A stretch of 55,473 nt of DNA from an uncultured Eubacteriales bacterium. GTDB lineage: Bacteria > Bacillota > Clostridia > Christensenellales > Aristaeellaceae. Below, one piece after another: positions 14,017 to 30,110 of the stretch; position 1 is the stretch's first letter; every line of letters starts with the position of its first letter. The position numbers were made by a program, and so were the translations under genes. Below the pieces are notes generated by a model. It was not told where the DNA came from. It was given only the letters and a program-made list of their open reading frames with translations, and searched no databases. The DNA is taken from assembly GCA_902764285.1 (NCBI GenBank), contig CACWVN010000003.1:1-55473 (forward strand), in the 5' to 3' direction.

Positions 14017-14089
14017 ACGCTCCTTTTCATTTGGAAATTGGAAACGGGCGGCAGGGGTGCGGGGGAAGCCGGTCTCCCGCCAACAGGAT

Positions 14090-14309
14090 AAAAAAACAGC
14101 CTTCGCCCGTGCGTCACGCCGGGACGAATGCTGTGCATCCGCGGTTCCACCCTGCTTGTGTAAACCCCTCGATCGCGCTGTATCGCGCGCGAAACGCCTG
14201 CCATCGAGGGGCGGTATCCCGCGGCGGCCGCGGTACGCGCTTTCAGCCTGCGGCGCATACTCTCTTGCCGTGCCCTTCCGGGGGACTTGTTCCCTGTCAC
14301 CTGATAGGT
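14090..14309 (-). promoter_or_regulatory. T-box riboswitch leader of thrS
   Basis: The minus-strand leader contains the T-box sequence AGGGTGGAACCGCGG (14153-14139), the antiterminator element that pairs with the uncharged tRNA 3' end. Next comes a terminator hairpin around 14135-14097 whose arms include TTCGTCCCG and CGGGCGAA, followed by seven U (14096-14090). Upstream lie AGAGAGT and GGCTGAAAG, typical of Stem I. An ACC triplet at 14234-14232 is a plausible threonine specifier. When tRNA-Thr is uncharged the antiterminator should form and thrS be transcribed. Confidence 0.9.
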
Positions 14310-14315
14310 GAATTG

Positions 14316-14344
14316 ATTCTATCACGTTTCCGGGGGCTTGTCAA
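14316..14344 (-). promoter_or_regulatory. Sigma-A promoter of thrS
   Basis: Consensus TTGACA (14344-14339) and TAGAAT (14321-14316) with 17 bases between, immediately upstream of the T-box leader on the minus strand. Confidence 0.88.
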
Positions 14345-14619
14345 CGCCTGAACCGGGCCGCAGAGGCGGGGAATCGCCGCCGCGAACCGAAACTTGACGT
14401 GGATTTAACGCAAAAACGCCCCAAAGCGCAACTCCGGCGCCGCAATTGCGGGAGGCGCCCCCGAAAAGAGTCCGGGAAGGCCCGAACGCGCCCGCGATTT
14501 AACGAAGCAATCTGCAATTATTTAAACGAATATGTCAATCCGCGCCCGGAAAGGATGATAAGATAATCGCGTCGGGCGGGACGGCTGCCCGGCAGAGGGA
14601 ACCCAAGGAGGTAAGCATT
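14345..14619. other. Intergenic region without recognisable gene
   Basis: This stretch separates the thrS promoter from the 47-residue ORF. It is GC-rich with interspersed A-runs. A degenerate promoter for the small ORF may lie at 14532-14567 (ATGTCA, then AT-rich GATAAGATAAT), but the spacing is not convincing. Nothing else is supported. Confidence 0.5.
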
Positions 14620-14763
14620 ATGAACAATTGGTATGAATTGCAGAACATGAGCACCCGCCTGTCCGAGGACGTCGGCGCGCCGGAACTGCGCAGCCCCAGC
14701 GTCAGCGGCATGCGCCCGCAGACCGGCTGGTTTGCGCGGCTGGTGAAGGCGATCGTCGGCTGA
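14620..14763 (+). CDS. Small protein of 47 residues, unknown
   Basis: An ATG at 14620 with a consensus AAGGAGG 6-12 bases upstream opens a 47-codon frame ending in TGA. A perfect intrinsic terminator follows 17 bases later. The peptide starts MNNWYELQNMST and ends WFARLVKAIVG, a short amphipathic basic-hydrophobic helix. There is no signal peptide or cysteine motif. It is isolated between the thrS promoter and the glycosidase operon, facing the opposite way from both. The ribosome site plus terminator make it a credible monocistronic small gene. I recognise no family; a membrane-active or regulatory peptide is conceivable. Confidence 0.7.
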   Translation: MNNWYELQNMSTRLSEDVGAPELRSPSVSGMRPQTGWFARLVKAIVG

Positions 14764-14780
14764 GCGCGGACGCATAGAGA

Positions 14781-14814
14781 AAGCCCGCTTCCCGGAATGG
14801 GAAGCGGGCTTTTT
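14781..14814. terminator. Intrinsic terminator after the 47-residue ORF
   Basis: AAGCCCGCTTCCC (14781-14793) pairs perfectly with its complement starting at 14799 around a short loop and is followed by five T on the plus strand. It can also terminate the convergent GH1 transcript, though with a poorer U-run. Confidence 0.88.
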
Positions 14815-14827
14815 GCGCCCTTTGCCG

Positions 14828-16174
14828 TCAGTCGTTCAGGCACGCGCCGTTGGTTTCGATCACCTTCGCGTACCAGCGGGCGGAATCCTTGGGGATGCGC
14901 CGCAGCGTGGGATAATCCACGTAGATGATGCCGAAGCGCTCGTCGTAGCCGCTGGCCCATTCGAAGTTGTCCAGGAAGCTCCACTGCAGGTAGCCCAGCA
15001 CCGGCGCGCCCTCGGCGATGGCCTTCGACAGCTCGGCCAGATAGCGGTGCAGGAAATCGATGCGCTTGGGATCGTGCACCTGGCCGTCGCGGAAGATCAT
15101 ATCGTTGCAGGACAGGCCGTTTTCGGTGATCATCACCGGCAGCCCGTACCGGCGGTACAGGTTCAGAGGGCCGTAGTGCATCACCTCCGGCGTGACGGGC
15201 CACTTGCATGCCGTGCGCGGGAACCCGCGGAAGGGCGGCAGGTCGCGGCCGGCGTCGTCCACCCTGTTGCCGTTGTAGACGTTGATGCCGATGAAATCCG
15301 GGGCCTCCATGGCCGCCCAGTCGGATTCGGGGACGGTGGCGGCGAACTTCTTCACCGCGGCGGGCGCGCTGTCGTCGTACTGGCGCAGGATCACGCTGTC
15401 CAGGACGATGTTGTGGCAGCCCTGCCAGCCCTGGGACAGATCGAAGGTGGCGCGGTAGGCGGCCTCGCGGTTTTCGGGCGTGTCCTGCTGCGGGAAGCAC
15501 AGCCGCCCGCAGGGCACCAGGCCCACCACAGTCTCCGGGTCCACGGCCTTGATGGCGCGCTGGGCGGCGCTGTGGGCCAGCGCGATGTGGTGGTACAGCC
15601 GGGCGATGTCCTCGTCGGGGCAGCGCCAGCCGGGCGCCATGACCTCGGTGGTGTAGCCCAGGGCGATGCACTGGGGCTCGTTGATGGTCATGTACTTCTT
15701 CACGCGGCCCTTGAACCGGCGGGCGACGACATCGGCGTAGCGGGCGAAGATATCGACGATCTCCCGGTTCAGCCATCCGCCGCGGTACTGCAGCGCGCTG
15801 GGCAGGTCCCAGTGGTACAGCGTGATCATCGGCTCGATGCCCTCGGCCAGCAGCCGGTCGACGAGGTCGTCGTAGTAGGCCATGCCGGCTTCGTTGACGG
15901 CGCCGTCGCCGTCGGGCATCACCCGCGCCCAGCTGATGGAAAAGCGGTAGGCCCGGATGTTGTGCTGCTTCATCAGCGCGATGTCCTCGGGATAGCGGTG
16001 GTAGCTGTCGCAGGCGACGTCGCCGTTGTCGTTGTTCTTCACGGGGCCGCCGCCGACGCGGTGGGTGAAGTCGTCCCAGATGTTCGGCCCCTTGCCGTCG
16101 GCGTCCCAGGCGCCTTCGCACTGGTAGGACGCGCAGGCCACGCCCCAGATGAAATCCTTGGGAAACTGTATCAT
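14828..16174 (-). CDS. GH1 family glycosidase (beta-glucosidase/6-phospho-beta-glucosidase type)
   Basis: A cytoplasmic retaining glycosidase of 448 residues, the normal GH1 length. FPKDFIWGVACASYQCEGAW opens the barrel. The acid/base glutamate is in TINEPQ (E166) and the nucleophile in ITENG (E351). LGYLQWSFLDNFEWASGY and RFGIIYVDY are the family's C-terminal signatures. ATG at 16174 has AGGAGG 8 bases upstream. The frame remains open upstream into the GNAT gene with no stop between, so an in-frame GNAT-GH1 product is possible. It is the last gene of the GH2-GH3-GNAT-GH1 operon and probably hydrolyses short beta-glucosides or beta-mannosides taken up by the cell. Confidence 0.93.
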   Translation of the reverse strand: MIQFPKDFIWGVACASYQCEGAWDADGKGPNIWDDFTHRVGGGPVKNNDNGDVACDSYHRYPEDIALMKQHNIRAYRFSISWARVMPDGDGAVNEAGMAYYDDLVDRLLAEGIEPMITLYHWDLPSALQYRGGWLNREIVDIFARYADVVARRFKGRVKKYMTINEPQCIALGYTTEVMAPGWRCPDEDIARLYHHIALAHSAAQRAIKAVDPETVVGLVPCGRLCFPQQDTPENREAAYRATFDLSQGWQGCHNIVLDSVILRQYDDSAPAAVKKFAATVPESDWAAMEAPDFIGINVYNGNRVDDAGRDLPPFRGFPRTACKWPVTPEVMHYGPLNLYRRYGLPVMITENGLSCNDMIFRDGQVHDPKRIDFLHRYLAELSKAIAEGAPVLGYLQWSFLDNFEWASGYDERFGIIYVDYPTLRRIPKDSARWYAKVIETNGACLND

Positions 16175-16747
16175 CGATAGACCTCCTCGGTGTGTTTCGC
16201 CCGATCCGTCCTTGCGATAGCGCCTGGGGCTGAAATCCGGCGCGCATTCGCGCACCCGGGTCACCAGCGCTTCATAGGCTTCGCGGTCGAAGGGCGGGTC
16301 GCTGCAGACGATTTCAAATTCGGTTTCCATGTAGAACTGGTACCAGCCGGTGGCGTGGAACCCGTTGCGCAGGTAAAACCCGCGGCGGCGCAGCCGCTGG
16401 GCGTGGTTGGGCGCATCCGGGTCGGGCGCCTCGAAATCCACTACGATCTGGCGGCCGGGATACCGTTCGGGCAGCAGGCGCAGCGCGCGACTGCCCACGC
16501 CCCTGCCCCGGCATTCGGCGCGGACGGCGAAATAACAGACGTAGGCGCAGCGCCCGCAGGCCAGCACGCTCACAAACCCGGCAAACCGCCCGGCCTCGTA
16601 GATGCCCAGCAGATCGCGCTTCAAGCCGTTCAGGTCGGCAAACAGCTGGGCAACGGTGAGCCGCTCCTGCGGGGGAAAGGCCTCGTCGTTCAGCGCCTGC
16701 AGCGCGGCCGTGTCGGCGCAGCCGGGGAAAAGCGGGATCAGCTCCAT
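16175..16747 (-). CDS. GNAT family N-acetyltransferase, reading in frame into GH1
   Basis: A 191-codon acetyltransferase segment starting at ATG 16747, which shares one base with the GH3 stop codon (TGATG), so translation is coupled. The acetyl-CoA-binding motif is CYFAVRAECRGRGVGSRALR. GFYLRNGFHATGWYQF and a C-terminal FEIVCSDPPFDREAYEAL are typical of small-molecule GNATs. There is no stop before the GH1 ATG: the frame runs through the GH1 ribosome site and continues as GH1. In the next frame a TGA overlaps the GH1 start (ATGA), where a normal stop would be expected. It may therefore be a true fusion with internal re-initiation, or a gene whose end has shifted frame. The acyl acceptor is unknown. 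Confidence 0.8.
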
Positions 16748-19014
16748 CAGCCGTTCAGCTGTTCCAGCAGCCGGTCCAGGAAATCCGGGGGCAGCTGGTC
16801 GCCGCCGAAGGAGATGATGCCGCGCAGCGGCATGTAGTTCATCATCGCCAGGGTCATCTCGGTGGAGATGGCTTCCTCGGCGGCGCTGCCCTCGCCGCCG
16901 CCGAAGGTGGCGGTCAGGGCGTCGATGATGGGTTTCATGGCCGCGGCGCCGGCGGGAGACTTCATCACGTCCAGCAGGATGCTGTTGGCATCGTAATGCA
17001 TCGGCACCGCCACCGTGGATTCCACATGGACCGGCGCGCTGACCTCGATGTCGCGGCTGGACTGGCCGATCTCCACGGCGTAGTCGCCGGACTCCACGTG
17101 CCAGTCGTGCAGGGCCGCGTTCCAGTAGGCGAACGAGCGCTTGTCCAGCGTGAAGGTCACGTCCTTCGCCTCGCCGGGCTGCAATTCGATCTTTTCAAAG
17201 CCCTTCAATTCGCGCACCGGGCGGATGACCTCGCCCTCGCCGGCGCGCACGTACAGCTGCACTGCCGTCTTGCCCGGGCGGCCGCCGGTGTTCTTTACGG
17301 TGACGGTGGCGGTGAGCGCGTCGGTATCCTTGACGGACGCGGCGCTCAGCCGCAGGTTGGAGTATTCAAAGGCGGTGTAGGACAGGCCGTAGCCGAAGGG
17401 GAACAGCACGTCCATTTCCTTTTTATCATAGTAGCGGTAGCCCACGAACACGCCTTCGCGGTATTCGGTGGCGTCGCCCTCGCCCACGTAATAGAGATAG
17501 GAGGGGTTGTCCTGCAGGCGCAGGGGGAAGGTCTCCGCCAGGCGGCCGGAGGGATCCGCGTCGCCGAACAGCACCCGCACGGTGGCCAGGCCCACGGCCT
17601 GCCCGCCCAGGTAGGCCTCCAGCACGGCCTTCACCCTGCCGATCCAGGGCATCTCCACCGGGGAGCCGTTGTGCAGCACCACGACGGTGTTGGGGTTGGC
17701 GTCGGCCACGGCCTCGATCAGCTTCACCTGGCATTCGGGCATGCGCATGTGCCTGCGGTCGTAGCCCTCGGATTCGTAGGAATCCGGCAGGCCCGCGAAC
17801 ACCACGGCCACCTTCGCGGCCTTCGCCGCGGCCACGGCTTCGGCGATCATGGCGTCGTCGGCGCGGTCGGCGGCCGTGTCATAGCCCCGGGCGTAGGTCA
17901 CGTTCAGGCCCTCGGCGGCCTGGACGGCGCTGGTGGTTTTGAAGCAGTGGATGTGGCTGCTGCCGCCGCCCTGGAAGCGGGGCTTCTCGGCGAACTCGCC
18001 GATGAAGGCGACGGAATCGGCCTTGGAAAGCGGCAGGATGCCGCCCTCGTTCTTCAGCAGCACCATGCACTCCGCGGCGATCTGGGCGGACAGCTCGTGC
18101 TGGGCCTCCATGTCCCAGGGCGTGTCCGGCTTCGCGTTCTCCGTGTAGCGGTAGACGATGTTCAGGATGCGCTCGCAGGCCAGGTCCACGTCGCTCTCCG
18201 CCAGCGTGCCCGCGCGCACGGCCGCGACGATCTTCCGGTCGTTGATGCCGCCGGAGGAGGGCATCTCCAGGTCCAGCCCGGCGTGCACGCCCACGGCGCG
18301 GTCGGCGGTGGCGCCCCAGTCGGACATCACGTAGCCCTCGAAGCCCCATTCATCGCGCAGCACGTCGGTCAGCAGCCAGCGGTTTTCCGAGGCGTAGACG
18401 CCGTTGATGCGGTTGTAGCTGCACATCACCGTCCAGGGCTGGGCCTTCTTCACGGCGGTTTCAAAGGCGGGGAAATAGATCTCCCGCAGGGTGCGCTCGT
18501 CGGCTTCGGAGGAGGAGGACATGCGCCGGTGCTCCTGGCTGTTGGCGGCGAAATGCTTGATGGAGGTGCCCACGTTCTGGCTCTGCACGCCCTGGATGTA
18601 GGCGGCGGCCATCTCGCCGGCCAGGTACGGGTCCTCGCTGAGATATTCGAAATTGCGGCCGCACAGCGGGCTGCGCTTGATGTTCACCGCCGGGCCCAGC
18701 ACCACGGACAGCTTTTCATGCTGGCAGGATTCGCCGATGGCCCGGCCCATGCGGTTCACCAGCGCCTTGTCGAAGGACGCGGCGGTGGCGCAGCCGGCGG
18801 GGAAGCACACGGCCTCGATGCTGTCGTTCACGCCCAGGTGGTCGGCGCCGTCGTCCTGCTTGCGCAGGCCGTGGGGGCCGTCGGAGACCATCGTGGCGGG
18901 CACGCCCAGGCGCTCGACGGCCTTGGTATGCCAGAAATCGGCGCCGGAGCACAGCCCGGCCTTTTCCTCCAGGGTCATTTCGGCGATCAGGGAACGGATT
19001 TTGGTGATGTCCAT
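16747..19014 (-). CDS. GH3 family glycosidase (beta-glucosidase type)
   Basis: A 755-residue retaining glycosidase without a signal peptide. The N-terminal barrel shows MVSDGPHGLRKQ, SIKHFAANSQEHRR and the nucleophile aspartate in YVMSDWGA (D232). The alpha/beta sandwich domain follows, with VVVFAGLPDSYESEGYDR, which supplies the likely acid/base glutamate region. A fibronectin-III-like domain (about 570-670) contains LFPFGYGLSYT and ELKGFEKIELQPGE. An extra C-terminal segment with DFLDRLLEQL follows. It shares its stop with the GNAT start. It removes terminal beta-linked sugars from imported oligosaccharides; exact linkage is not readable. The start has AGGAGCC upstream at a normal distance. 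Confidence 0.93.
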   Translation of the reverse strand: MDITKIRSLIAEMTLEEKAGLCSGADFWHTKAVERLGVPATMVSDGPHGLRKQDDGADHLGVNDSIEAVCFPAGCATAASFDKALVNRMGRAIGESCQHEKLSVVLGPAVNIKRSPLCGRNFEYLSEDPYLAGEMAAAYIQGVQSQNVGTSIKHFAANSQEHRRMSSSSEADERTLREIYFPAFETAVKKAQPWTVMCSYNRINGVYASENRWLLTDVLRDEWGFEGYVMSDWGATADRAVGVHAGLDLEMPSSGGINDRKIVAAVRAGTLAESDVDLACERILNIVYRYTENAKPDTPWDMEAQHELSAQIAAECMVLLKNEGGILPLSKADSVAFIGEFAEKPRFQGGGSSHIHCFKTTSAVQAAEGLNVTYARGYDTAADRADDAMIAEAVAAAKAAKVAVVFAGLPDSYESEGYDRRHMRMPECQVKLIEAVADANPNTVVVLHNGSPVEMPWIGRVKAVLEAYLGGQAVGLATVRVLFGDADPSGRLAETFPLRLQDNPSYLYYVGEGDATEYREGVFVGYRYYDKKEMDVLFPFGYGLSYTAFEYSNLRLSAASVKDTDALTATVTVKNTGGRPGKTAVQLYVRAGEGEVIRPVRELKGFEKIELQPGEAKDVTFTLDKRSFAYWNAALHDWHVESGDYAVEIGQSSRDIEVSAPVHVESTVAVPMHYDANSILLDVMKSPAGAAAMKPIIDALTATFGGGEGSAAEEAISTEMTLAMMNYMPLRGIISFGGDQLPPDFLDRLLEQLNG

Positions 19015-19036
19015 TTGAAGGCTCCTTTCGGGGTTA

Positions 19037-19080
19037 GGGAGTAGGCAGTAGGGAGTAGGGAGTAGGCAGTAGGGAGTAGG
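19037..19080. repeat. Heptad repeat array GGGAGTA/GGCAGTA
   Basis: Six consecutive 7-base units read GGGAGTA, GGCAGTA, GGGAGTA, GGGAGTA, GGCAGTA, GGGAGTA (19037-19078). The same units occur at 9841-9861. The array lies just upstream of the GH3 start, inside the presumed operon. Confidence 0.85.
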
Positions 19081-19100
19081 GGAGCGCGCTGGTAACCGTA

Positions 19101-19288
19101 GGGCCGCCGAATGGCGAGCAGGCAGCCGACCAAGAGCGAGGCCGAAGGCCGAGGAGCGGCGAGGTCACCGGCGAAGCCGGATGGCTGACCCGCCGCGAAG
19201 CTGCGGGCCGCCGAATGGCGAGCAGGCAGCCGACCAAGAGCGAGGCCGAAGGCTGAGGAGCGGCGAGGTCGCCGGCGAAGCCGTATGG
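19101..19288. repeat. 84-bp direct repeat in two copies
   Basis: Copies at 19101-19184 and 19205-19288 are 84 bp each and differ at three positions. A 20-base spacer separates them, giving a 104-bp period. The sequence contains GAATGGCGAGCAGGCAGCC and ends CGGCGAAGCC. It lies between the GH2 stop and the GH3 start. It could be a dispersed intergenic element of this genome duplicated here; no other copy is seen in the window. Confidence 0.9.
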
Positions 19289-19304
19289 TGGCACGCAGCC
19301 GACT

Positions 19305-21740
19305 TTACCGGATGTCGTAGACGCTGCGGGCGGAGACGTTCTCCGGCGTTCCGCGCAGCACCTTCACCCGGCGCTCGCCGGCGTTCATGTCGAAGAAGTT
19401 GTCCTCCAGCAGCACGTCCGGGCCGCACCGCAGCTCCACCGAGCGGGCGTAGGCCGCCGCGGTGACGACGACCTCGTCGCCCTCCAGCCGCGCTTCCAGC
19501 CGCGGGTCGGCGAACCGGAAGTGCTTCGGCGGGCAGAACAGCACGCTGCCACCGCCCACGGTCTCGCCGCGGTCGTCAATCAGCTCGTAGGAATAATAGC
19601 AGCCGTAGGTGTCCTCGTCGTGGAAATCCTGTTCGGGCAGCCAGACGGCGGACATCGGCGGCACGGACACGTCGAAGCTGCCCTCGCGGATCACGGAGGC
19701 GTCGGGCCGGCGCAGCGCCCAGCGGGCGGTGCCGGCGAAGGGCGAAAGCGTCTCGTTCGACACGTTCAGCCGCGCGGTCTTTTTCAGGTCGAAGGGCTCG
19801 GCGTTCACGTTGGTGTCCTGGGAGAGGATGCCCTCTTCGTGGCAGGAGATCAGCACCGGCGCGAAGAACCGCTTTTCATAGTAGTGCAGCGCCTTCCAGC
19901 GGCCGTAGTAATCGATGCTGGCCCAGCTGACCACCGGCCAGCAGTCGTTCAGCTGCCACACCACCGCGCCCATGCAGCGGCCGCCGGTGCGGTTGCGGCG
20001 CCAGTGCTCCACGCCGTACTGCATGGCCTGCGCCTGCAGCAGCTGCGAGGCGTACACGAAGCCGTCCAGCGTGGACGGGTACAGGTAGTTCTGGGACAGG
20101 TAGGCGGCGATGCGGCCGTTGGCGGAGGAATTGCGCTGGTGCTTCTCCATCACATAGGAGAACACGTTCCTGTCCTCCGGCAGGGTGAACGATTCGATGG
20201 TCGCCATGCAGGGGAACGACTGGAACCCGAATTCGGACACGTAGCGGAACAGATAGTTCCGGTAGTCGGTGAAGGGCTTCAGGCCGTGCCACACGTCCCA
20301 GTAGTGCACGTCGCCGCGGTCCGGGTCCTGGGGCTCGTCAAAGCTGCCGCCCGAGGACGGGCTGGCCGGCCAATAGAAGGTGCCCGGGTCCTCTCGCTTC
20401 AGCACCTGGGGCAGGATGTATTCGTACATCTTGATGTAATCGGCCACCTGCCGCTTGCTGGACACCCATTCGCCGCAGGCCACGAACTGCTCCATTTCGT
20501 TGTTGCCGCACCACAGCGCCAGCGAGGCGTGGTGGCGCAGGCGGCGGATGTTGTCCGCGAACTCGGCGCGGATATTCTCCTCAAATTCATCGGTCAGGTT
20601 GTACACGGCGCAGGCGAACATGAAGTCCTGCCACACCAGCAGGCCCAGCTCGTCGCAGGCGTCGTAGAACCAGTCGTCGGGGTAGTAGCCGCCGCCCCAC
20701 ACGCGCACGCAGTTCATGTTGGCCAGCTTCGCGTCCTCCAGCAGCCGGCGGGTACGCTCGGGCGTCACCCGGGGCAGCAGGTTGTCCTCGGGGATATAAT
20801 CGGCGCCCATGGCGAACACGTCCACGCCGTTGACGGTGTGGCAGAAGCTCTCGCCCCATTCGTCTTTCCGGCGGGTGACCGTCAGCGTGCGCAGGCCGAT
20901 GCGCCTCTCCCAGCGGTCCAGCTCCGCGCCGTTCTTCAACAGCCGCACGCAAAGCGTGTACAGCGGCTGGCCGCCCAGCCCGTTGGGCCACCACAGCTGC
21001 GGATCGGCGATCTCGATGACCGATCCGCCGCCGGGGATCGCTTCGCCGTCGGGGCCGGTGAGCGCGGTGACCACCTGCACGCCGGAAGCGTCGTAGCGGT
21101 CCAGCGACGGCAGCACCGTCAGCGTGACGGAGCCGTCGGCGTGGTGCTGCTGGTGCACGCGCACGGATTCGATGCGGGCCTTCTCCACGCCGATGACGGC
21201 GATGTCCCGCCAGATGCCGGCGTCGGGCAGCCGCGGGCCCCAGTCCCAGCCGAACATGCAGTGGGCCTTGCGCAGCAGCGGGAAGCCCACCATGGCGTCG
21301 GTGGTGCCGTCGGCGCGGCTCTCGGCATAGGCGGAGCGGATGTAGCGCGTGGGCGAGGCGAAATCGACGCGGATGGTGTTTTCGCCGGGGCGCAGCACTT
21401 CCTTCACGTCAAATTCCCAGGTGCGGTGCATGTTGGCCAGCTGTGGGCTGCTCCATTCATCGTTGAGGGTGATCGTCGCCAGCGTGTCCAGCCCCTCGCA
21501 GCGCAGCAGCACCGCGTCGCAGTCCAGCAGCGCCGCCGGCACGTCGAAGCTGCGGGCGTAGCTGAAGTCGTGCTCCATCAGCTTCAGCGCTTCGTTTTCG
21601 TTGTCGCGGTAAAAGGGATCGGGGATCTCGCCGGCGGTGAGCAGGTCGTGGTACACCGACCCGGGCACCGTGGCCGGGACCTCGTGATCCCAGCCGGAAA
21701 CCCGCAGCGTCCAGCCGCCGTTCAGGGAGAGCTTTTTCAT
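19305..21740 (-). CDS. GH2 family beta-mannosidase
   Basis: An 811-residue enzyme that removes terminal beta-mannose from short mannosides. The N-terminal jelly-roll starts with LNGGWTLRVSGWDHEVPATV and continues with FGWDWGPRLPDAGIWRDI, strongly characteristic of beta-mannosidases. The barrel carries the acid/base glutamate in WCGNNEMEQF (E415) and the nucleophile in YVSEFGFQS (E503). There is no signal peptide, so it acts on sugars already inside the cell. The ATG at 21740 has GGAGGAA upstream; the longer frame upstream crosses the promoter and is not used. It is the first gene of the glycosidase operon, divergent from the Opp-type importer. Confidence 0.93.
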   Translation of the reverse strand: MKKLSLNGGWTLRVSGWDHEVPATVPGSVYHDLLTAGEIPDPFYRDNENEALKLMEHDFSYARSFDVPAALLDCDAVLLRCEGLDTLATITLNDEWSSPQLANMHRTWEFDVKEVLRPGENTIRVDFASPTRYIRSAYAESRADGTTDAMVGFPLLRKAHCMFGWDWGPRLPDAGIWRDIAVIGVEKARIESVRVHQQHHADGSVTLTVLPSLDRYDASGVQVVTALTGPDGEAIPGGGSVIEIADPQLWWPNGLGGQPLYTLCVRLLKNGAELDRWERRIGLRTLTVTRRKDEWGESFCHTVNGVDVFAMGADYIPEDNLLPRVTPERTRRLLEDAKLANMNCVRVWGGGYYPDDWFYDACDELGLLVWQDFMFACAVYNLTDEFEENIRAEFADNIRRLRHHASLALWCGNNEMEQFVACGEWVSSKRQVADYIKMYEYILPQVLKREDPGTFYWPASPSSGGSFDEPQDPDRGDVHYWDVWHGLKPFTDYRNYLFRYVSEFGFQSFPCMATIESFTLPEDRNVFSYVMEKHQRNSSANGRIAAYLSQNYLYPSTLDGFVYASQLLQAQAMQYGVEHWRRNRTGGRCMGAVVWQLNDCWPVVSWASIDYYGRWKALHYYEKRFFAPVLISCHEEGILSQDTNVNAEPFDLKKTARLNVSNETLSPFAGTARWALRRPDASVIREGSFDVSVPPMSAVWLPEQDFHDEDTYGCYYSYELIDDRGETVGGGSVLFCPPKHFRFADPRLEARLEGDEVVVTAAAYARSVELRCGPDVLLEDNFFDMNAGERRVKVLRGTPENVSARSVYDIR

Positions 21741-21803
21741 CGCAGTATTCCTCCGGCCGCGCGCTTTTTTCGGTTCATACGGGCGGCGCGGCCAATCACC
21801 ACC

Positions 21804-21832
21804 AATATACTTTATTTTGTAACGTCCGTCAA
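21804..21832 (-). promoter_or_regulatory. Promoter of the glycosidase operon
   Basis: TTGACG (21832-21827) and TATATT (21809-21804) with a 17-base spacer on the minus strand, about 65 bases before the GH2 start. Confidence 0.85.
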
Positions 21833-21949
21833 TATATTTACGGATTAATTTGTTCCGGGCGGCCGAACGGGCGCGCCGCGGCGGGATTCGGGGCTGCGGG
21901 AAGGGGACGGAAAGCGATGGAAAACAGGTGTTATGCCGCAACAAAGGCC

Positions 21950-21978
21950 TTGACACCGTATGGCCGGAATGATATACT
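21950..21978 (+). promoter_or_regulatory. Promoter of the Opp-type importer operon
   Basis: TTGACA (21950-21955) and TATACT (21973-21978) with 17 bases between and a TG one base before the -10 element. A small palindrome TGTTAACA at 21994-22001 sits just after the probable start point and could be part of an operator. The leader to the first gene is about 150 bases. Confidence 0.88.
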
Positions 21979-22049
21979 TATCCCGCTGAATGTTGTTAAC
22001 AGAAGCATAATAATTTTGTTGTCGAATGAGGAATGCGGCGCGGCCGCGC

Positions 22050-22076
22050 CGTTCTTTTCCGGGGACGAAAAGAACG
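22050..22076 (+). other. Stem-loop in the importer mRNA leader
   Basis: CGTTCTTTTC (22050-22059) and GAAAAGAACG (22067-22076) form a perfect 10-bp stem. A GC palindrome lies just before it and a short AAGCCCC/GGGCTT hairpin just after. No U-run follows. I match it to no known riboswitch class. Confidence 0.5.
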
Positions 22077-22136
22077 GGATTGAAAACGTCGCTCAAGCCC
22101 CAAGGGCTTAGCAAATAAAGATTGGAGGAAGAATCC

Positions 22137-23924
22137 ATGAAGAAACTCCTGTGCCTGGCCATCGCCCTGATGCTGGCTCTGACCGCCATCGGCGCGCTGG
22201 CCGAAACCACCGACCTGCCCCGCAATGAGACGCTGTATTTCGCAGGCCAGCAGTGGGGCTCCGTCAACAGCTGGAACATCATCGGCACCAACCAGAACAA
22301 CTCGATGGCGATCGCGGGCAACGCCGGCGGCTATCGCACCCTGATGTTCGAGACGCTGTACATGTACAACTTCCTCAACGGCGAGCTGATCGGCCTGCTG
22401 GCCAACGATGACTACGCCTGGAACGAGGACATGACCCAGCTGACCCTGACCATCAAGGACGCGGCCAAGTGGTCCGACGGCACCCCCGTCACCGCCGCTG
22501 ACGTGCAGCGCACCTTCGATATCGGCGTCGAGATCGGCAACGGCACCGGCACCGGCCTGAAGGGCTACATCGAGAGCATCGAGGCCGACGGCAACAAGGT
22601 GATCATCAACGCCAAGCTGAACGACGAAGGCAAGCCCGTGAACCCCCTGAAGATCATGGACTTCCTGACCGGCACCCCCATCGCCCAGGCCGCGTGGATC
22701 GACACCGTGGTCGAGCGCAACAACGGCGACGCCGTGTCCATCCTGAACGACGCCGGTGAAGACGTCGTCTGGTCCGGCCCCTACACCAAGTACTTCGCCG
22801 ACGACCAGAAGGTCGTGCTCATCCGCGACGACAACTACTGGGGCCAGGACGAGTCCATGTGGGGCAAGCTGCCCGTGCCGAAGTACATCGCCCATGCGAT
22901 CTACGCCGACAACCCCGCCGGTGAGAACGCCCTGAAGGCCGGCGAAGTGGACGTCTGCCAGCAGTTCATCGGCAACGTGCAGAACCTGTGGCTGGAAGAC
23001 GGCCTGCCGATCTCCACGTTCTATGAAGAGGCGCCCTACGGCGTCTGCCTGACCATGCCCACCGCGTGGTACAACTTCAACATCCCCGTGCTGGCCGAGA
23101 ATCCGGCGCTGCGCAAGGCCATCGCCATGGCCGTTGACTATGACACCATCATCGCCAACGCCATGACCAACCAGAGCCCCTCCTTCTCCGACGTGCCGCG
23201 TTCTCTGATGAACCCCACCGAGGGCGAGCAGGCTCTGTATGACCACGAGGCGGTTGCCGACCTGCAGTGGGCCGGCATGGATATCGACGGTGCCAACGCC
23301 CTGCTGGACGAGGCGGGCCTGGTCGATACCGACAACGACGGCTGGCGCGAGTACAACGGCGAGAAGATCTCCCTGAACGCCGTGTGCCCCAACGGCTGGA
23401 CCGACTGGCAGGCTTCCATGGAAGTGGTTGCGGCTGCCGGCAAGAACATCGGCATCGAGATCACCACTCTGTATCCGGAATGGGATATCTATCAGACCGT
23501 GTTCACCAATCCCAGCCAGACCGATTACGCCATCTTCATGTGGTCTCCCGACGCCGCCGCTCCGTCCAACCCCTGGCAGCGCGTGAACCAGTTCATGGGC
23601 GGCGAGTTCGTGGGCGTCGAGAACAACTGGAGCGGCAACTGGGGCCAGTATGTGAATCCGGAAGCCGACGAGCTGCTGAAGAAGATCCCGCTGACCACCG
23701 ATGCTGAGGAGCTGAAGGCTCTGTACACCGAGCTGACCAAGATCTATCTGACCGAGGTTCCCAGCTTCTCCCTGATGTATCGTCCGTCCCTGTTCCACGC
23801 CGTGAACGAGTCCGTCTGGACGAACTTCCCCGCTGGCGACGACGGCCGCAACATCCCGCCGGCCGACTGCACCGACGGCTACGGCATCCGCGCTCTGTAT
23901 GAGCTGGAGCTCGTGGAGGGCTAA
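22137..23924 (+). CDS. Opp/Dpp-type ABC transporter substrate-binding protein (SBP_bac_5)
   Basis: A 595-residue extracytoplasmic binding protein for the importer encoded downstream. The fold family is shown by LIGLLANDDYAWNEDMTQLT, then IKDAAKWSDGTPVTAADVQ, ALRKAIAMAVDYDTII, and a C-terminal YTELTKIYLTEVPSFSLMY. The signal peptide ends GALA|E, a signal peptidase I site, and there is no lipobox cysteine, which is unusual for a Gram-positive binding protein. ATG at 22137 has GGAGGAA upstream. Family members bind peptides, but in several bacteria this cluster binds beta-oligosaccharides. The divergent GH2/GH3/GH1 operon favours the latter as an inference. Confidence 0.92.
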   Translation: MKKLLCLAIALMLALTAIGALAETTDLPRNETLYFAGQQWGSVNSWNIIGTNQNNSMAIAGNAGGYRTLMFETLYMYNFLNGELIGLLANDDYAWNEDMTQLTLTIKDAAKWSDGTPVTAADVQRTFDIGVEIGNGTGTGLKGYIESIEADGNKVIINAKLNDEGKPVNPLKIMDFLTGTPIAQAAWIDTVVERNNGDAVSILNDAGEDVVWSGPYTKYFADDQKVVLIRDDNYWGQDESMWGKLPVPKYIAHAIYADNPAGENALKAGEVDVCQQFIGNVQNLWLEDGLPISTFYEEAPYGVCLTMPTAWYNFNIPVLAENPALRKAIAMAVDYDTIIANAMTNQSPSFSDVPRSLMNPTEGEQALYDHEAVADLQWAGMDIDGANALLDEAGLVDTDNDGWREYNGEKISLNAVCPNGWTDWQASMEVVAAAGKNIGIEITTLYPEWDIYQTVFTNPSQTDYAIFMWSPDAAAPSNPWQRVNQFMGGEFVGVENNWSGNWGQYVNPEADELLKKIPLTTDAEELKALYTELTKIYLTEVPSFSLMYRPSLFHAVNESVWTNFPAGDDGRNIPPADCTDGYGIRALYELELVEG

Positions 23925-23973
23925 TGGATAAACGCCGGGCAACCTGAGACCGCGAGGCCGCGGGTTTCCCAAT

Positions 23974-24007
23974 GGGACATGCCCCATCTGCCGGTGGGGC
24001 ATGTCCC
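23974..24007. other. Perfect stem-loop between binding-protein and permease genes
   Basis: GGGACATGCCCC (23974-23985) pairs perfectly with its complement at 23996-24007 around a 10-base loop. No U-run follows. Such hairpins after a binding-protein gene often stabilise the upstream message and reduce read-through, giving more binding protein than permease. The rest of 23925-24162 holds no supported gene. Confidence 0.75.
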
Positions 24008-24162
24008 CACGTTTATCCGGCGCGCGTTTCCCGGAGATCCCCGATTGTGGGGGCGCCGATTCGGGGCCGATCAGGTTTCCCAGCGCCGCGCCGGCCAGAC
24101 CGGCGCCGAACCGGCATCCCTGCATCCCGTTCTTTCACTACGCATGACATGGGGGAATCGAT

Positions 24163-25170
24163 ATGAAAGGATACCGCAAATACTTCGGAAAGAAGCTGGC
24201 GTGGTTTCTGATCACGCTGGTGGTTGCCGTGATCCTGAACTTCGTGCTGCCGCGGCTGATGCCGGCCGACCCGGTGTCGGCCATCACGGGCAAGATGGCC
24301 CAGGGCATGACCGACGCCAGCGCGGTGCAGGAGATCTACAAGCGCTACGAGGCGGAGTTCGGCACCAACAAGCCCATGATCGAACAGTTCTTCATCTTCG
24401 TGAAGAACCTGTTCCGGGGCGATCTGGGCACCTCGTTCAGCCAGTATCCCCGCAAGGTGAGCAACATCATCTCCAGCGCCATCGGCTGGACCATCGCGCT
24501 GCAGCTGCCGGCGATCATCGTGGGCTGGCTGCTGGGCAACCTGCTGGGCGCGCTGGCGGCCTACATCCGAAAGGGCTTCGACAAGGTGCTGCTGCCCATA
24601 TCGCTGTTTTTGAGCAACGTACCGGCGTTCGGCATGGCGGTGACGCTGCTGGTGCTGTTCGCCGTCAACTGGAAGATCGCGCCGATCGGAGGCGGCTACG
24701 CCTTCGACATGATCCCCAATTTCAGCTGGCGGTTCGTCAAATCGGTCATCAGCCACTACCAGCTGCCGTTCTGGTCGATCGTGCTGGTCTCCATCGGCGG
24801 CCAGGCGGTGGGCATGCGCTCCATGTCCATCTATGAGCTGAACGCCGACTACGTGAAGTACGCCCGCTTCCTGGGCATCAAGGACCGCAAGATCGTCGGC
24901 TACGTGTTCCGCAACGCCATGCTGCCCCAGGTCACCGGCCTGGCGCTGTCCATCGGCACCATGATCGGCGGCGCGCTGGTGGCCGAGATCATATTCAGCT
25001 ATCCGGGACTGGGCAGCACGATGTATTCCGCGGTCACCGCCGCGGACTACCCTCTGATCTCCGCCACGACGCTGATCATTACCATCATGGTGCTGATCGT
25101 CACGTTCGTGCTGGATATCGTGTACGGCTTTATCGATCCGCGCGTCAAGGCCGCGCAGTTCGACGCGTAA
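24163..25170 (+). CDS. ABC transporter permease, OppB/DppB type
   Basis: The first of two membrane subunits of the importer, 335 residues. [23 protein letters not shown] is the first helix and typical N-terminal motif. The cytoplasmic EAA loop reads [18 protein letters not shown], and the C-terminal helices include [25 protein letters not shown] at 24163 has GGGGGAA upstream. Thirteen bases separate its stop from the next permease start, so the two are translated together. Confidence 0.95.
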
Positions 25171-25183
25171 GGGGGTGTGAGGC

Positions 25184-26431
25184 ATGAAGAATACGCTTCG
25201 ACAGGTGTTTCATTCCTCAAAGTTCCTGGTGGGCTTCATCATCTTCGTCGCCATACTGCTGACGATGTTCATCTACCCGCTGATCAACCCCGGCAATCCG
25301 CTGGAGATGATCGGCGTGGGCACCTTCGCCCGCCCGGGCACCTACGTTTCGCTGTATGACGCCGCCAAGACGCCCACCGAGACGCTGCGCCTGGCCGACG
25401 CCGACGACAAGCGCCTGGCCAAGCAGCTGTCCGACGAGGACCGCGTGGCCATGGTGGAATGGTTCTCCGCCACGGGCGTGGATATCGAGGGCCTGGATAT
25501 CAGCGATACCGACGCGCTGCTGGAGCTGTGGCGCGCGAATTACGACCCCGCCGTCAAGCCCAAGGGCATGACCCAGGCCAAGCGCAATTACTACAAGCGC
25601 CTGGACGCGGCCATCAAGGAAGTGGGCGCCGCCGACACGCTGATCATCGCCGATACCGGCGAGGGCGGCGCGCTGGAAAAGCAGGGCGCCATCACCAAGA
25701 CCGATTACGTGAACGTCGGCCAGGTGGCGAACGTGAAGATCCTGCCGCTGGGCACCGACAACTTCGGCCGCGACGTATTGAAGGAGCTGGTCTCCGCCGC
25801 GGGCACGTCCATCGTCATCGGCCTGCTGGCCGGCCTGGTGGCCACGCTGATCGGCCTGTCGCTGGGCCTGCTGTCCGGCTACGTGGGCGGGATCTGCGAT
25901 GACATCATCATGTTCATCACCAACATCTTCACGGTCATCCCCGGATTCGTGCTGCTGATCCTGATCAGCTATTCCATCGGCCAGGAGCAGCGCGGCGCCG
26001 CCGTGGTGGCGCTGGTCATCGGCCTGACCAGCTGGACGTGGACGTGCCGATCCGTGCGTTCGCAGGTCATCTCCCTGCGCAACCGCGACCACGTGAACCT
26101 GTCCAAGCTGTCGGGCCACAGCCTGTTCCGCATCATACTGACCGACATCCTGCCCTACATCGCCAGCTACGTGGTGATGGCGTTCATCCTGCAGGTGTCC
26201 TCGGGCATACTGGCCGAAGCGCAGCTGTCGCTGCTGGGCCTGGGCCCGAAGACCACCGAGGTGCCCACGCTGGGCCTGATGATGAACTGGGCCATGCTGT
26301 ACTCGGCGCATACGAACGGTTCCTGGTGGGCGTATTTCCCGGTCATACTGACGATTACGCTCATCTCGTTCTCGCTGAATCTGATGAATACCGGCCTGGA
26401 CCAGGTGTTCAACCCGACCCTGAGAGACTAA
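25184..26431 (+). CDS. ABC transporter permease, OppC/DppC type, with a long extracytoplasmic insertion
   Basis: The second membrane subunit, 415 residues against about 300 for the family. After the first helix ([20 protein letters not shown]) the hallmark LGTDNFGRD appears only at residues 189-197. Roughly 110 extra, mainly hydrophilic residues therefore precede it (about 60-175, including [15 protein letters not shown] and [17 protein letters not shown]). The EAA loop is [17 protein letters not shown]. The C-terminal part [20 protein letters not shown] is typical. The insertion lies in the loop expected to face the outside, where it might contact the binding protein. Start ATG at 25184 has GGGGGTG upstream. 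Confidence 0.93.
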
Positions 26432-26446
26432 GGAGGAGAGACGGAC

Positions 26447-27523
<1,077 letters not shown>

Positions 27524-27526
27524 CAC

Positions 27527-28366
27527 GTGAGTGAGACCAAAGCGATCCGCCGTGATCTGGCGAACGCGCCTTCCTGCCTGCGCGGCGAGGGCGTGACCCG
27601 GTATTTCCACACCGGCAAGATTACTACCAAGGCCGTCGACCACGTGAATTTCGATTTCCACGAGGGCGAGCTGGTCAGCATCGTGGGCGAGTCCGGCTCC
27701 GGCAAGACCACCCTGTCCAAGATGCTGCTGGGCCTGCTGAAGGAGACCGACGGCAAGATCTACTTCCAGGGCAAGCCCAGGGACATCTCCTCCCGGGCGA
27801 AGCTGAAGGAATACTGGTCGGGCATCCAGGCCATCTTCCAGGACCCGTTCTCCTCCTTCAACACCTTCAACAAGATCGACACGGTGCTGCTGGACTGCAT
27901 CAACATGCGCGGCGGCAAGAACCTGCCGAAGGAAAAGAAGATCGAGATGATGACGGAGGCCTGCTCCTTCGTGAACCTGAAGTTCGCGGAACTGACCAAC
28001 AAGTATCCCTTCGAGCTGTCCGGCGGCCAGATGCAGCGGCTGATGATCGCCCGCATCTTCCTGCTGAAGCCGAAGATCCTGCTGGCCGACGAGCCGACAT
28101 CGATGATCGACGCCTGCTCCCGCGCCACGATCCTGGACATGCTGCTGCAGCTGCGCGACGAGATCGGCATGACCGTTATCTTCATCACCCACGATATCGG
28201 CCTGGCCTATTATATCTCCGACAGCATCTATATCATGGAGCACGGCAAGTTCGTGGAGAGCGGCCCCGCCGACGAGGTCATCCTGAACCCCCAGGCGCCC
28301 TATACCAAGCGCCTGATCAGCGACGTGCCGAAGATCCACGAGCCCTGGGACCTGTCCACGGTTTAA
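27527..28366 (+). CDS. ABC transporter ATP-binding protein, OppF/DppF type
   Basis: The second ATPase, 279 residues, starting at GTG 27527 with GGGGGTG upstream. Walker A is GESGSGKTT, the Q-loop [11 protein letters not shown], the signature [13 protein letters not shown], and Walker B ILLADEP followed by TSMIDACSR. The cysteine-containing C-terminal extension of OppF is nearly absent, so it is a short form (usual length about 320). It closes the operon, 75 bases before a perfect palindrome. Confidence 0.94.
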
Positions 28367-28441
28367 GGCGCGTTTCCAAATCCGCAAAATGCATTTGGAA
28401 ACACATTCCAAGGGCGGAAACGGGGCGAAACCACCATCTCA

Positions 28442-28473
28442 CGCGCAGGGGCGGCCATGGCCGCCCCTGCGCG
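28442..28473. repeat. 32-bp perfect palindrome after the importer operon
   Basis: CGCGCAGGGGCGGCC and its complement meet at a central CATG, forming an uninterrupted palindrome at 28442-28473. No U-run follows, so it is not a textbook terminator. It shares the AGGGGCG outline of the element at 9889-9911. It may work as a transcript end or processing site, or be a dispersed palindromic element. Confidence 0.75.
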
Positions 28474-28530
28474 GCTGTCCGTCGAAGCCGCCTTGCGTTT
28501 TCCGGACGGCACAGATGGCGCGGGGCGCAC

Positions 28531-28559
28531 TTGATTCAATCGTCCGGACGTGGTATAAT
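28531..28559 (+). promoter_or_regulatory. Promoter of the GGDEF gene
   Basis: TTGATT (28531-28536) and perfect TATAAT (28554-28559) with 17 bases between and an extended -10 TG. The 75-base leader holds one hairpin (GGCGG and CCGCC arms, 28580-28601), not a recognised cyclic-di-GMP riboswitch. Confidence 0.88.
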
Positions 28560-28636
28560 TTTCCTATGATATAAAAAAAGGCGGGGTATACCCTCCGCCG
28601 TCCGTGGTTGAGCGGCAATACAGGAGCAAAAAACAA

Positions 28637-30001
28637 ATGGCTTTATTGAAAAAGGCGAAAAGAGAAGGCGTTTCCCTGAGAACCATTCACGGATGGCTGG
28701 TCATTCTGGCGATCATTACGTGCGGGCTCTTGATCGCATCCACGTTCTATTCCTTCGCAACTTTCCGGCATCTTTCCGAGGCGACCGACGATTACATCGA
28801 GCTGCAGAAGGCGGCCTACGAGCTGATGAACGCCTCCGATTATCTGACGGAGATGGCCCAGCGCTTCGCGGCGTCCGGCGACATGGAATACCTGGAAGGC
28901 TATTTCAACGAGGCGTTTGAGACCAGGCGCCGCGAAGACGCCGTGGAGAAGATGTCTGAAAAACCCGAGAACGCCGACGCGCTGGCGCAGCTGCAGGAGG
29001 CCATGAACGGCTCCGTGAAGCTGATGGAACGGGAATACTATTCGATGAGGCTGGTCGTCGAGGCCTATGGCTATACGGATTATCCCGACGTGCTGCGGGA
29101 GGTCGAGTTAACGCCGGAGCACGCCGCGCTGTCTGCCGAGGAAAAGAAGGAACTGGCCGAGGACATGGTGCTGGGCAGGGATTATTATGTGGAAAAGGAT
29201 ATGATCCGCACCGACATGCGCGAGAGCCTGGAGGCGCTGGAGAACACGACCCACGCCACCCAGACCCGGTCCACGTCGGCTTTGGAAACCGCGCTGGTCA
29301 TCATGCGCATCGCCATCATCATCCAGACGATCGGCATCCTGGCCATGATCTGGCTGACGACCCGCCTGGGCATCAACCCGGTGCTGAAGGCCGTGGACCG
29401 CATTCGGGACGACAGCCCGATCCCCGTCACCGGCGCCAACGAATTCCGCTATCTGGCCCGGGCCTACAACCAGATGTACGAGGCCTACAAAAAGAGCGTG
29501 GAGCGCCTGAACTTCAAGGCTTCCCACGACGAACTGACGCAGGTCTACAACCGCGCCGGATACGACATGCTGCTGTCCAGCCTGGACATGGACAAGCTGT
29601 ACATGCTGGTATTCGACGTGGACAACTTCAAGCTGGTCAACGACAACTACGGCCACGAGATCGGGGACAAGGTGCTGAAAAAGGTGGCGGAGACCGTGCG
29701 GCACAACTTCCGGTCGGACGACTACGTCTGCCGCTTGGGCGGGGATGAGTTCGTGGTGCTGATGGTGCACGTGGCCAGGAACCAGACGCGGCTGATCCAA
29801 ACGAAGTTCACCCGGATCAACGAGGAATTGGCCGACACGGCGGACGGACTGCCGAAGGTATCGGTCAGCGTTGGCGCGTCCCACGGGGTGAACGCCTCCG
29901 ACGCCCGGGAGCTGTTCACCCAGGCGGATCGGGCGCTGTACGAATCCAAGCGCCGCGGCCGGTGTGATTTCACGTTCTTTACCGGCGAGGCCGGGGCATA
30001 A
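28637..30001 (+). CDS. Membrane-bound diguanylate cyclase (GGDEF)
   Basis: Makes cyclic-di-GMP from two GTP. A 454-residue protein with two membrane helices (WLVILAIITCGLLIAS near residue 20; IMRIAIIIQTIGILAMIWL near 225) flanking a helical extracytoplasmic sensor region. A HAMP-like linker precedes the GGDEF domain (about 300-450). There LVFDVDNFKLVNDNYGHEIGD supplies the metal-binding aspartate, and an intact LGGDEF lies near 368-372. No RxxD inhibitory site is obvious. ATG at 28637 has AGGAG upstream. It probably shares a transcript with the EAL gene 109 bases downstream, giving a paired synthesis and breakdown module. Confidence 0.93.
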   Translation: MALLKKAKREGVSLRTIHGWLVILAIITCGLLIASTFYSFATFRHLSEATDDYIELQKAAYELMNASDYLTEMAQRFAASGDMEYLEGYFNEAFETRRREDAVEKMSEKPENADALAQLQEAMNGSVKLMEREYYSMRLVVEAYGYTDYPDVLREVELTPEHAALSAEEKKELAEDMVLGRDYYVEKDMIRTDMRESLEALENTTHATQTRSTSALETALVIMRIAIIIQTIGILAMIWLTTRLGINPVLKAVDRIRDDSPIPVTGANEFRYLARAYNQMYEAYKKSVERLNFKASHDELTQVYNRAGYDMLLSSLDMDKLYMLVFDVDNFKLVNDNYGHEIGDKVLKKVAETVRHNFRSDDYVCRLGGDEFVVLMVHVARNQTRLIQTKFTRINEELADTADGLPKVSVSVGASHGVNASDARELFTQADRALYESKRRGRCDFTFFTGEAGA

Positions 30002-30110
30002 ACGAGGTTTTCCCGCGGGAACCGGACCGCCGGTCCCGCCGATACATACCGCGCGCGTTTTGCGGTGAGGCCAGCCCACCGCAGAGGACGGCGAGGAAGG
30101 GTCACGGGTT

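What the first reader, a model, noticed from the sequence alone, without database searches (positions are those of the whole stretch)
14828..28366. Divergent GH2-GH3-GNAT-GH1 operon and Opp-type importer as one beta-oligosaccharide locus
Seen: two strong promoters back to back (21804-21832 minus; 21950-21978 plus). One drives cytoplasmic beta-mannosidase, GH3 and GH1 enzymes, the other a complete five-gene Opp/Dpp-type importer. Known: some SBP_bac_5 importers in thermophiles carry beta-mannosides or cello-oligosaccharides instead of peptides. Inferred: this importer takes up beta-manno- or gluco-oligosaccharides that the glycosidases degrade. No regulator gene is present, so control must come from elsewhere.
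Basis: partly seen in the sequence, partly recalled or inferred. Interest (0 to 1): 0.72.

Follow-up and report, generated by a model that had tools for sequence, protein, structure and literature searches.

The report
Opp-type importer for beta-oligosaccharides
A gut-type Clostridia gene cluster whose importer looks like a peptide transporter is most likely a sugar transporter that feeds beta-linked oligosaccharides to the enzymes encoded beside it, a relative of a system known from heat-loving Thermotoga.

Summary
One correction: the GNAT domain reads in frame into GH1. (1) By sequence, profile and fold the binding protein's nearest solved relatives are Thermotoga cellobiose/laminaribiose- and mannoside-binding proteins; four of five alignable sugar-stacking tryptophans are identical, the fifth is Phe. 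(2) Of 80 related loci, 40 have both ATPase genes and at least 2.5 kb on both sides; 37 of these 40 carry GH1/2/3/94 within 5 kb. Ten of 80 add a cellobiose phosphorylase-type GH94, pointing to gluco- more than manno-oligosaccharides. Twenty-one of 80 carry a LacI gene, 17 of these with a matching operator; the window has neither, so outside control is right here but not typical. The kind is known (Thermotoga bgl/cel loci); this is a broad gut branch of it. Side finding: the importer mRNA has a covarying leader hairpin that also precedes other substrate-binding-protein genes of the genus.

The parts
14828..16174 (-). GH1 beta-glucosidase (448 aa from its own ATG)
   Evidence: PF00232 445.8 bits; TIGR03356 478.7 bits against a cut-off of 478.5; nearest solved chains are named beta-glucosidases; NEP and TENG motifs present (motif roles recalled)
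16175..16747 (-). GNAT acetyltransferase domain, in frame with GH1 (one 639-aa frame 14828-16747)
   Evidence: PF00583/PF13508; a relative 64% identical lies directly downstream of a GH1 69% identical in G013
16747..19014 (-). GH3 beta-glucosidase-type enzyme, no signal peptide evident by eye
   Evidence: PF00933/PF01915/PF14310; nearest solved chain 7ms2 Thermostable beta-glucosidase B, 918 bits
19305..21740 (-). GH2 beta-mannosidase-type enzyme, no signal peptide evident by eye
   Evidence: PF22666, PF17786 Mannosidase_ig; nearest solved chains are named beta-mannosidases, 490 bits
21804..21832 (-). promoter of the glycosidase genes
   Evidence: kept in L021 and L085
21950..21978 (+). promoter of the importer genes
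   Evidence: both hexamers identical in L021 and L085, spacer diverged
22079..22136 (+). leader element: covarying hairpin roughly 10-20 nt upstream of the Shine-Dalgarno of the SBP gene
   Evidence: RNAalifold found no consensus structure
22137..23924 (+). SBP_bac_5 binding protein, sugar-binding branch; signal-peptide-like N-terminus without lipobox
23925..24162 (+). SBP-permease gap folding into very strong stem-loops (-118 kcal/mol over 238 nt)
   Evidence: role (uneven expression of SBP and permeases) inferred
24163..25170 (+). permease 1 (OppB-like)
   Evidence: PF00528
25184..26431 (+). permease 2 (OppC-like), 415 aa
   Evidence: PF00528; Opp4C aligns to residues 170-411 only
26447..27523 (+). 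ATPase 1 (OppD-like)
   Evidence: PF00005, PF08352
27527..28366 (+). ATPase 2 (OppF-like), short C-terminal region
   Evidence: PF00005, PF08352 over half its length

Best explanation
The cluster is a beta-oligosaccharide utilisation locus. An exported binding protein of the sugar-binding branch of SBP_bac_5 captures short beta-linked oligosaccharides, most likely cello- or mixed-linkage gluco-oligosaccharides and possibly glucomannan fragments, with the terminal sugars stacked in a tryptophan cage. The two permeases and two ATPases import them. Cytoplasmic GH3/GH1 beta-glucosidases and the GH2 beta-mannosidase-type enzyme then release monosaccharides. Shown: gene content, family relationships, conserved promoters, conserved linkage, conserved subsite-one residues. 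Inferred: the ligand, enzyme location and activity, co-transcription and joint regulation. In this branch the LacI gene that accompanies 21 of 80 relatives is absent together with its operator, so control must come from another factor or be lax.
For: Binding protein: best PDB matches are tmCBP (2o7i/4jsd) and TM1223/TM1226. A model of pLDDT 85.8 has only these as its seven best Foldseek hits (query-normalised TM 0.77-0.82); ranks 8-11 are Vibrio chitin-oligosaccharide binders. From the printed alignments and the residue list in PMC3850815, tmCBP W15/W380/W383/W426 correspond to W40/W421/W424/W469 and W510 to F553. Linkage: 37 of 40 informative loci; GH3 within 600 nt downstream on the same strand in 37 of 52; GH94 in 10 of 80, one of which (L069) scores 1,055 bits to cellobiose phosphorylase, 409 to chitobiose phosphorylase and 74 to cellodextrin phosphorylase, the other nine being 79-96% identical to it. 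The own genome has an exported GH5 whose best match is a beta-1,3-1,4-glucanase and no GH26 match. Precedent: Thermotoga bglREFGKL-TM0026-bglB-lamA and CelR(LacI)-celEFGKL with cellobiose phosphorylase (PMC3750489, passages).
Against: Identity to tmCBP is only 27%. Its subsite-two residues D33 and Q34 align with R67 (invariant here) and T68, so longer ligands may be bound differently; W535 could not be aligned. The window has no GH94 and no endo-glycanase beside the cluster. GH3 scores best in NCBIfam against an exo-alpha-L-arabinopyranosidase model (847 bits, below its cut-off of 1300). L041 and L042 carry the importer beside an AraC-type gene with none of the four GH families within 5 kb. 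From Foldseek rank 12 on, NikA and peptide binders mix with the chitin binders. No ligand has been measured.
Confidence: 0.85

Rival explanations
1. The importer carries beta-manno-oligosaccharides only; GH3 and GH1 are auxiliary.
For: The divergent partner gene is GH2 of beta-mannosidase type, within 5 kb of the importer in 30 of 80 loci; TM1223/TM1226, solved with mannobiose and mannohexaose, are structural neighbours ranked 2-7.
Against: GH3 accompanies the importer more often (43 of 80) and cellobiose phosphorylase-type GH94 in 10 of 80; no GH26 match in the own genome; best sequence and fold match is the cellobiose/laminaribiose binder. GH113 and GH5 mannanase subfamilies were not sought.
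Confidence: 0.15
2. It is an ordinary oligopeptide importer that happens to sit beside glycosidase genes.
For: NCBIfam's best-scoring models for the binding protein and permeases are oligopeptide or nickel systems, all far below their cut-offs.
Against: Glycosidase linkage in 37 of 40 informative loci; peptide binders rank well below the sugar binders; none of the four other SBP_bac_5 proteins of the genome has the GWTDW-like motif.
Confidence: 0.04
3. It imports another beta-linked ligand, such as chito-oligosaccharides, xyloglucan fragments or plant beta-glucosides.
For: Vibrio chitin-oligosaccharide binders are the next structural group (ranks 8-11); subsite two differs from tmCBP.
Against: No chitin- or xyloglucan-type partner enzyme among the 20 window and neighbour proteins that I scanned with Pfam; most neighbour genes were not scanned.
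Confidence: 0.1

Closest known systems
Thermotoga maritima bgl locus (bglREFGKL-TM0026-bglB-lamA; tmCBP)
   Same: Importer of five genes with a tmCBP-type binding protein next to a beta-glucosidase gene (PMC3750489 passages; PMC3850815); subsite-one aromatic cage conserved.
   Different: No adjacent regulator and no laminarinase gene in the window's cluster; GH2 and GH1 added; divergent arrangement; subsite-two residues differ; host is a gut-type Clostridia genome. That bglB is GH3 is recalled.
Thermotoga maritima CelR regulon (celEFGKL, cellobiose phosphorylase)
   Same: A LacI gene, the importer and GH94 occur together in several relatives of the window.
   Different: Neither LacI nor GH94 is next to the importer in the window.
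Thermotoga TM1223/TM1226 mannoside-binding proteins
   Same: Fold ranks 2-7; the GWTDW motif is shared.
   Different: Best sequence match is tmCBP; partner enzymes are more often of beta-glucosidase type.
Blautia producta mixed-linkage glucan locus
   Same: Gut Firmicute that imports beta-gluco-oligosaccharides and splits them inside the cell; GH94 present (PMC10318527, passages).
   Different: Its binding protein is described as cluster D-I, not SBP_bac_5, so the importer is of another kind.

Membership tests
Opp/Dpp-type ABC importer | SBP_bac_5, two BPD_transp_1 permeases, two ABC ATPases with oligo_HPY | tested here: met
tmCBP-like sugar-binding branch of SBP_bac_5 | closest to sugar- rather than peptide-binding structures | tested here: met
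tmCBP-like sugar-binding branch of SBP_bac_5 | subsite-one tryptophans (W15, W380, W383, W426, W510, W535) | tested here: met
   4 identical, W510 is F553, W535 not alignable; W421/W424/F553 invariant and W40 at least 90% in the 42-sequence alignment, W469 majority only
tmCBP-like sugar-binding branch of SBP_bac_5 | subsite-two/calcium residues D33, Q34 | tested here: not met
   aligned with R67 and T68
tmCBP-like sugar-binding branch of SBP_bac_5 | binds beta-gluco- or manno-oligosaccharides | not testable with these tools
   needs ITC or thermal shift
Thermotoga bgl/cel-type locus | beta-glucosidase gene linked to the importer | tested here: met
   window; GH3 in 43 of 80 loci
Thermotoga bgl/cel-type locus | adjacent sugar-responsive repressor with operator | tested here: not met
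   absent in the window; LacI in 21 of 80 relatives, operator motif in 17 of those 21, one of the 21 having no upstream DNA
Thermotoga bgl/cel-type locus | GH94 cellobiose phosphorylase | tested here: not met
   absent in the window's cluster; 10 of 80 relatives
GH2 beta-mannosidase | closest to known beta-mannosidases, catalytic Glu motifs | tested here: met
   NNE and SEFG motifs in the translation (roles recalled); activity not testable

The most novel reading that the evidence does not exclude
Gut Clostridia hold a large clade of Opp-fold beta-oligosaccharide importers, easily taken for peptide importers, with a remodelled second subsite. Their mRNA opens with a covarying hairpin upstream of the ribosome-binding site that belongs to an undescribed, lineage-wide leader RNA heading substrate-binding-protein genes of several ABC and TRAP families: a shared post-transcriptional layer that would set binding-protein output irrespective of substrate.
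Probability: 0.3. Interest if true: 0.6.

Novelty: new member of a known kind. Interest (0 to 1): 0.4.

Why it matters
NCBIfam's nearest named models for these parts are oligopeptide or nickel systems, all below cut-off, so predictions of what gut and rumen Clostridia eat may miss a set of fibre-oligosaccharide importers. The conserved pairing with GH3, GH1, GH2 and GH94 gives a simple genomic rule for telling sugar-type from peptide-type SBP_bac_5 importers, and a defined ligand screen to test it.

Tried and rejected
LacI operator in the window: the motif CGWWWWCGWWWWCG, common in LacI-bearing relatives, has no match within 2 mismatches at 21741-22137. A palindrome at 21825-21844 over the minus promoter's -35 is not kept in L021, L085 or L023 (read by eye), so I reject it as an operator. 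The perfect inverted repeat 22049-22077 falls in a stretch absent from L021 and L085. The three LacI genes of the own genome lie on other contigs; those on C43 and C45 are about 35-44% identical to importer-linked LacI proteins, that on C60 under 30% over part; no operator ties any of them to this locus.

Rfam: in 14000-29000 at E up to 1 only a T-box below its gathering score before thrS and two chance miRNA hits; none at gathering score in five relatives. Against the hairpin reading: RNAalifold found no consensus structure on the leader alignment; the 22 leaders aligned were chosen by eye from 52, so the pair counts lean towards the hairpin; in the folding control the gap before permease 1 also folds strongly. 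A first ORF caller gave antisense shadow genes and was replaced.

Literature: seven search listings were obtained. Of papers I saw PMC3850815 (outline, first fifth of the text, sections 7, 8 and 10), and passages only of PMC10318527, PMC5217386, PMC3750489 and PMC6851124. In what I saw, no Opp-type beta-oligosaccharide importer of gut Clostridia and no such leader hairpin is described; for the hairpin only bears on it, and it returned no paper. Fibrobacter succinogenes, a rumen bacterium, has Opp-like proteins assigned to cellobiose import by homology (PMC6851124, passage).

Full report
Observation. The window is contig C3 of a 2.82-Mb, 176-contig genome. The two divergent promoters match the consensus, and in an alignment with L021 and L085 both keep their hexamers and spacing while the plus-strand spacer diverges, as expected of working promoters. 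The GNAT part is not a separate gene in this sequence: PF00583 and PF00232 sit in one 639-aa frame, although GH1 keeps its own ribosome-binding site and start. A lost stop or a base error cannot be told apart from a true fusion here.

Which branch the binding protein belongs to. phmmer against PDB sequences ranks tmCBP (2o7i and 4jsd, 1e-60), TM1223 (1e-46) and TM1226 (1e-45) first, then Vibrio chitin-oligosaccharide binders (1e-14); the first peptide binders are 7z8e (a YejA, 4e-11) and OppA 8are (1e-8). A profile from 42 sequences gives the same grouping. A predicted model (pLDDT 85.8, pTM 0.84) has as its seven best Foldseek matches only Thermotoga cellobiose or mannoside proteins, then at ranks 8-11 Vibrio chitin-oligosaccharide binders, and from rank 12 NikA and peptide binders mixed with them. 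In tmCBP six tryptophans contact the first two sugar rings (PMC3850815, section 7). By the printed alignments W15, W380, W383 and W426 are W40, W421, W424 and W469 here, W510 is F553, and W535 is outside the alignment. W421, W424 and F553 are invariant and W40 at least 90% conserved in the 42 sequences; W469 is a majority residue only. The subsite-two residues D33 and Q34 align with R67 and T68. So the disaccharide cage is kept and the second subsite is remodelled. The four other SBP_bac_5 proteins of the same genome lack a GWTDW-like motif.

Linkage. A scan with the binding protein alone returned 80 loci, the best of 106 confirmed candidates, from records mostly titled uncultured Clostridiales, Clostridia, Lachnospiraceae or Oscillospiraceae, one Anaerolineaceae; many titles name rumen, other ruminant gut or rabbit samples. 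With a simple codon-usage gene caller and clustering, 40 of the 80 loci have two called ATPase genes and at least 2.5 kb on both sides; 37 of these 40 have GH1, GH2, GH3 or GH94 within 5 kb, the exceptions being L026, L041 and L042. Over all 80, 53 have such a gene (GH3 in 43, GH2 30, GH1 16, GH94 10); many of the others are cut short by contig ends. GH3 lies within 600 nt downstream on the same strand in 37 of 52 loci with two ATPase genes and at least 2.5 kb downstream. The own genome has six GH3 matches in 2.8 Mb, so chance neighbours are rare. The layout is modular: L021 and L085 share the GH1-GH3-GH2 divergent set (without GNAT), while L020, L022, L025 and L079 have GH3 downstream of the importer. 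The association, rather than the divergent layout, is what is conserved.

Substrate. The GH94 proteins lie between GH3 and GH1 in all 10 loci that have one. That of L069 scores 1,055 bits to cellobiose phosphorylase, 409 to chitobiose and 74 to cellodextrin phosphorylase; the other nine are 79-96% identical to it. The window's GH3 is closest to Thermostable beta-glucosidase B, its GH1 to beta-glucosidases, its GH2 to beta-mannosidases. The own genome has five GH5 matches; one protein with a signal-peptide-like start is closest to a beta-1,3-1,4-glucanase; no GH26 was found. I read this as gluco-oligosaccharides first, with glucomannan fragments explaining the GH2. Ligand binding is not shown.

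Regulation. Twenty-one of 80 loci carry a LacI-family gene as the next gene upstream of the binding protein; one (L031) was scanned by Pfam and the other 20 are 39-53% identical to it. A motif CGWWWWCGWWWWCG, one mismatch allowed, lies within 400 nt upstream of LacI in 17 of 21 loci (one of the four misses, L044, has no upstream DNA), against a mean of 0.38 and a maximum of 3 loci in 200 block shuffles. The motif was read off some of these same loci, so the count is partly circular. It is absent from the window and from 8 of 9 LacI-less relatives tested. Gene and operator are thus missing together in this branch. Three LacI genes elsewhere in the genome are candidates, without evidence.

Leader hairpin. 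Just upstream of the Shine-Dalgarno of the binding-protein gene the leaders form a short hairpin. In a folding test 69% of 52 such leaders fell more than one s.d. below their shuffles, against 19-30% for most other gene starts of the same loci, but also 47% for GH1 and 55% for permease 1. On 22 leaders picked by eye from the 52, 75.4% of cells pair against 66.5 +/- 1.8% in shuffles, and cells changed on both sides number 21 against 8.8 +/- 2.2; the automatic consensus fold found nothing. A covariance model finds 64 matches at E up to 10 in 78 sources; the 27 with E at most 0.02 are the 22 training leaders and five new ones (L020, L025, L028, L037, L039), each just upstream of the binding-protein gene, and weaker ones are mixed. 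In 28 genomes of the genus, where at most 150 candidates per genome were scored, there are 35 matches at E up to 0.05. Eleven are at this importer, in all 11 of these genomes that have it, 8 of the 11 being training sequences. Of the other 24, 17 precede proteins with a Pfam substrate-binding domain (Peripla_BP_4, SBP_bac_1, SBP_bac_8 or DctP; one, a 61-aa fragment, below cut-off), 2 precede unassigned proteins with an exported look, and 5 precede others: a GLUG protein, ribosomal protein S18, a biotin protein and two unassigned. Several of the 17 are the same gene in different species. In the own genome 11 of 18 other binding-protein leaders fold more than one s.d. below shuffles, against 4 of 22 other genes of the window (Mann-Whitney p 0.03); 7 of the 25 matches listed were dropped because no clear start or signal was seen. 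The feature is therefore general to binding-protein genes, not specific to this operon.

Known or new. The T. maritima bgl and cel loci (PMC3750489, passages) are the same kind: a five-gene importer, a beta-glucosidase or cellobiose phosphorylase gene, and a ROK or LacI repressor. The present cluster is a new member in a gut lineage. The Blautia producta mixed-linkage glucan locus (PMC10318527, passages) does the same job with a different importer class. I file it as a new member of a known kind.

Noticed in passing
22079-22136; L110-L139, L173-L177: Covarying hairpin before the Shine-Dalgarno of binding-protein genes; 28 of 35 genus-wide model matches precede a gene with a substrate-binding Pfam domain (11 at this importer, 17 others). 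No Rfam family matched the leader in the window or in five relatives.
   Followed up: partly
14828-16747; L106:3663-5569: GNAT domain in one frame with GH1; in G013 a GNAT relative (64%) sits directly downstream of a GH1 (69%) in another context, so the GNAT-GH1 pairing recurs.
   Followed up: partly
22137-22210: The binding protein has a signal-peptide-like start but no lipobox, and the genome has no Omp85 match; 26 of 80 relatives match a loose lipobox pattern (two doubtful). If the cell has no outer membrane, how an unlipidated binding protein stays at the surface is unclear.
   Followed up: partly
23925-24162: Very stable nested stem-loops between the binding-protein and permease genes (-118 kcal/mol).
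   Followed up: no
14117-14309: T-box-like leader before thrS on the minus strand, 36.8 bits, below the gathering score of 93.
   Followed up: no
28604-32426: A GGDEF protein and a GGDEF-EAL protein follow the importer; a promoter-like site at 28531-28559 suggests a separate unit.
   Followed up: no
25184-26431: The second permease is 415 aa; Opp4C aligns only to residues 170-411, leaving a long extra segment in the first half. The cluster of 71 relatives has a median length of 415 too.
   Followed up: no
L041, L042: These two loci carry the importer with an AraC-type gene instead of LacI and without GH1/2/3/94 within 5 kb; by eye a sugar-kinase-like gene lies further upstream, so the substrate may differ.
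   Followed up: no
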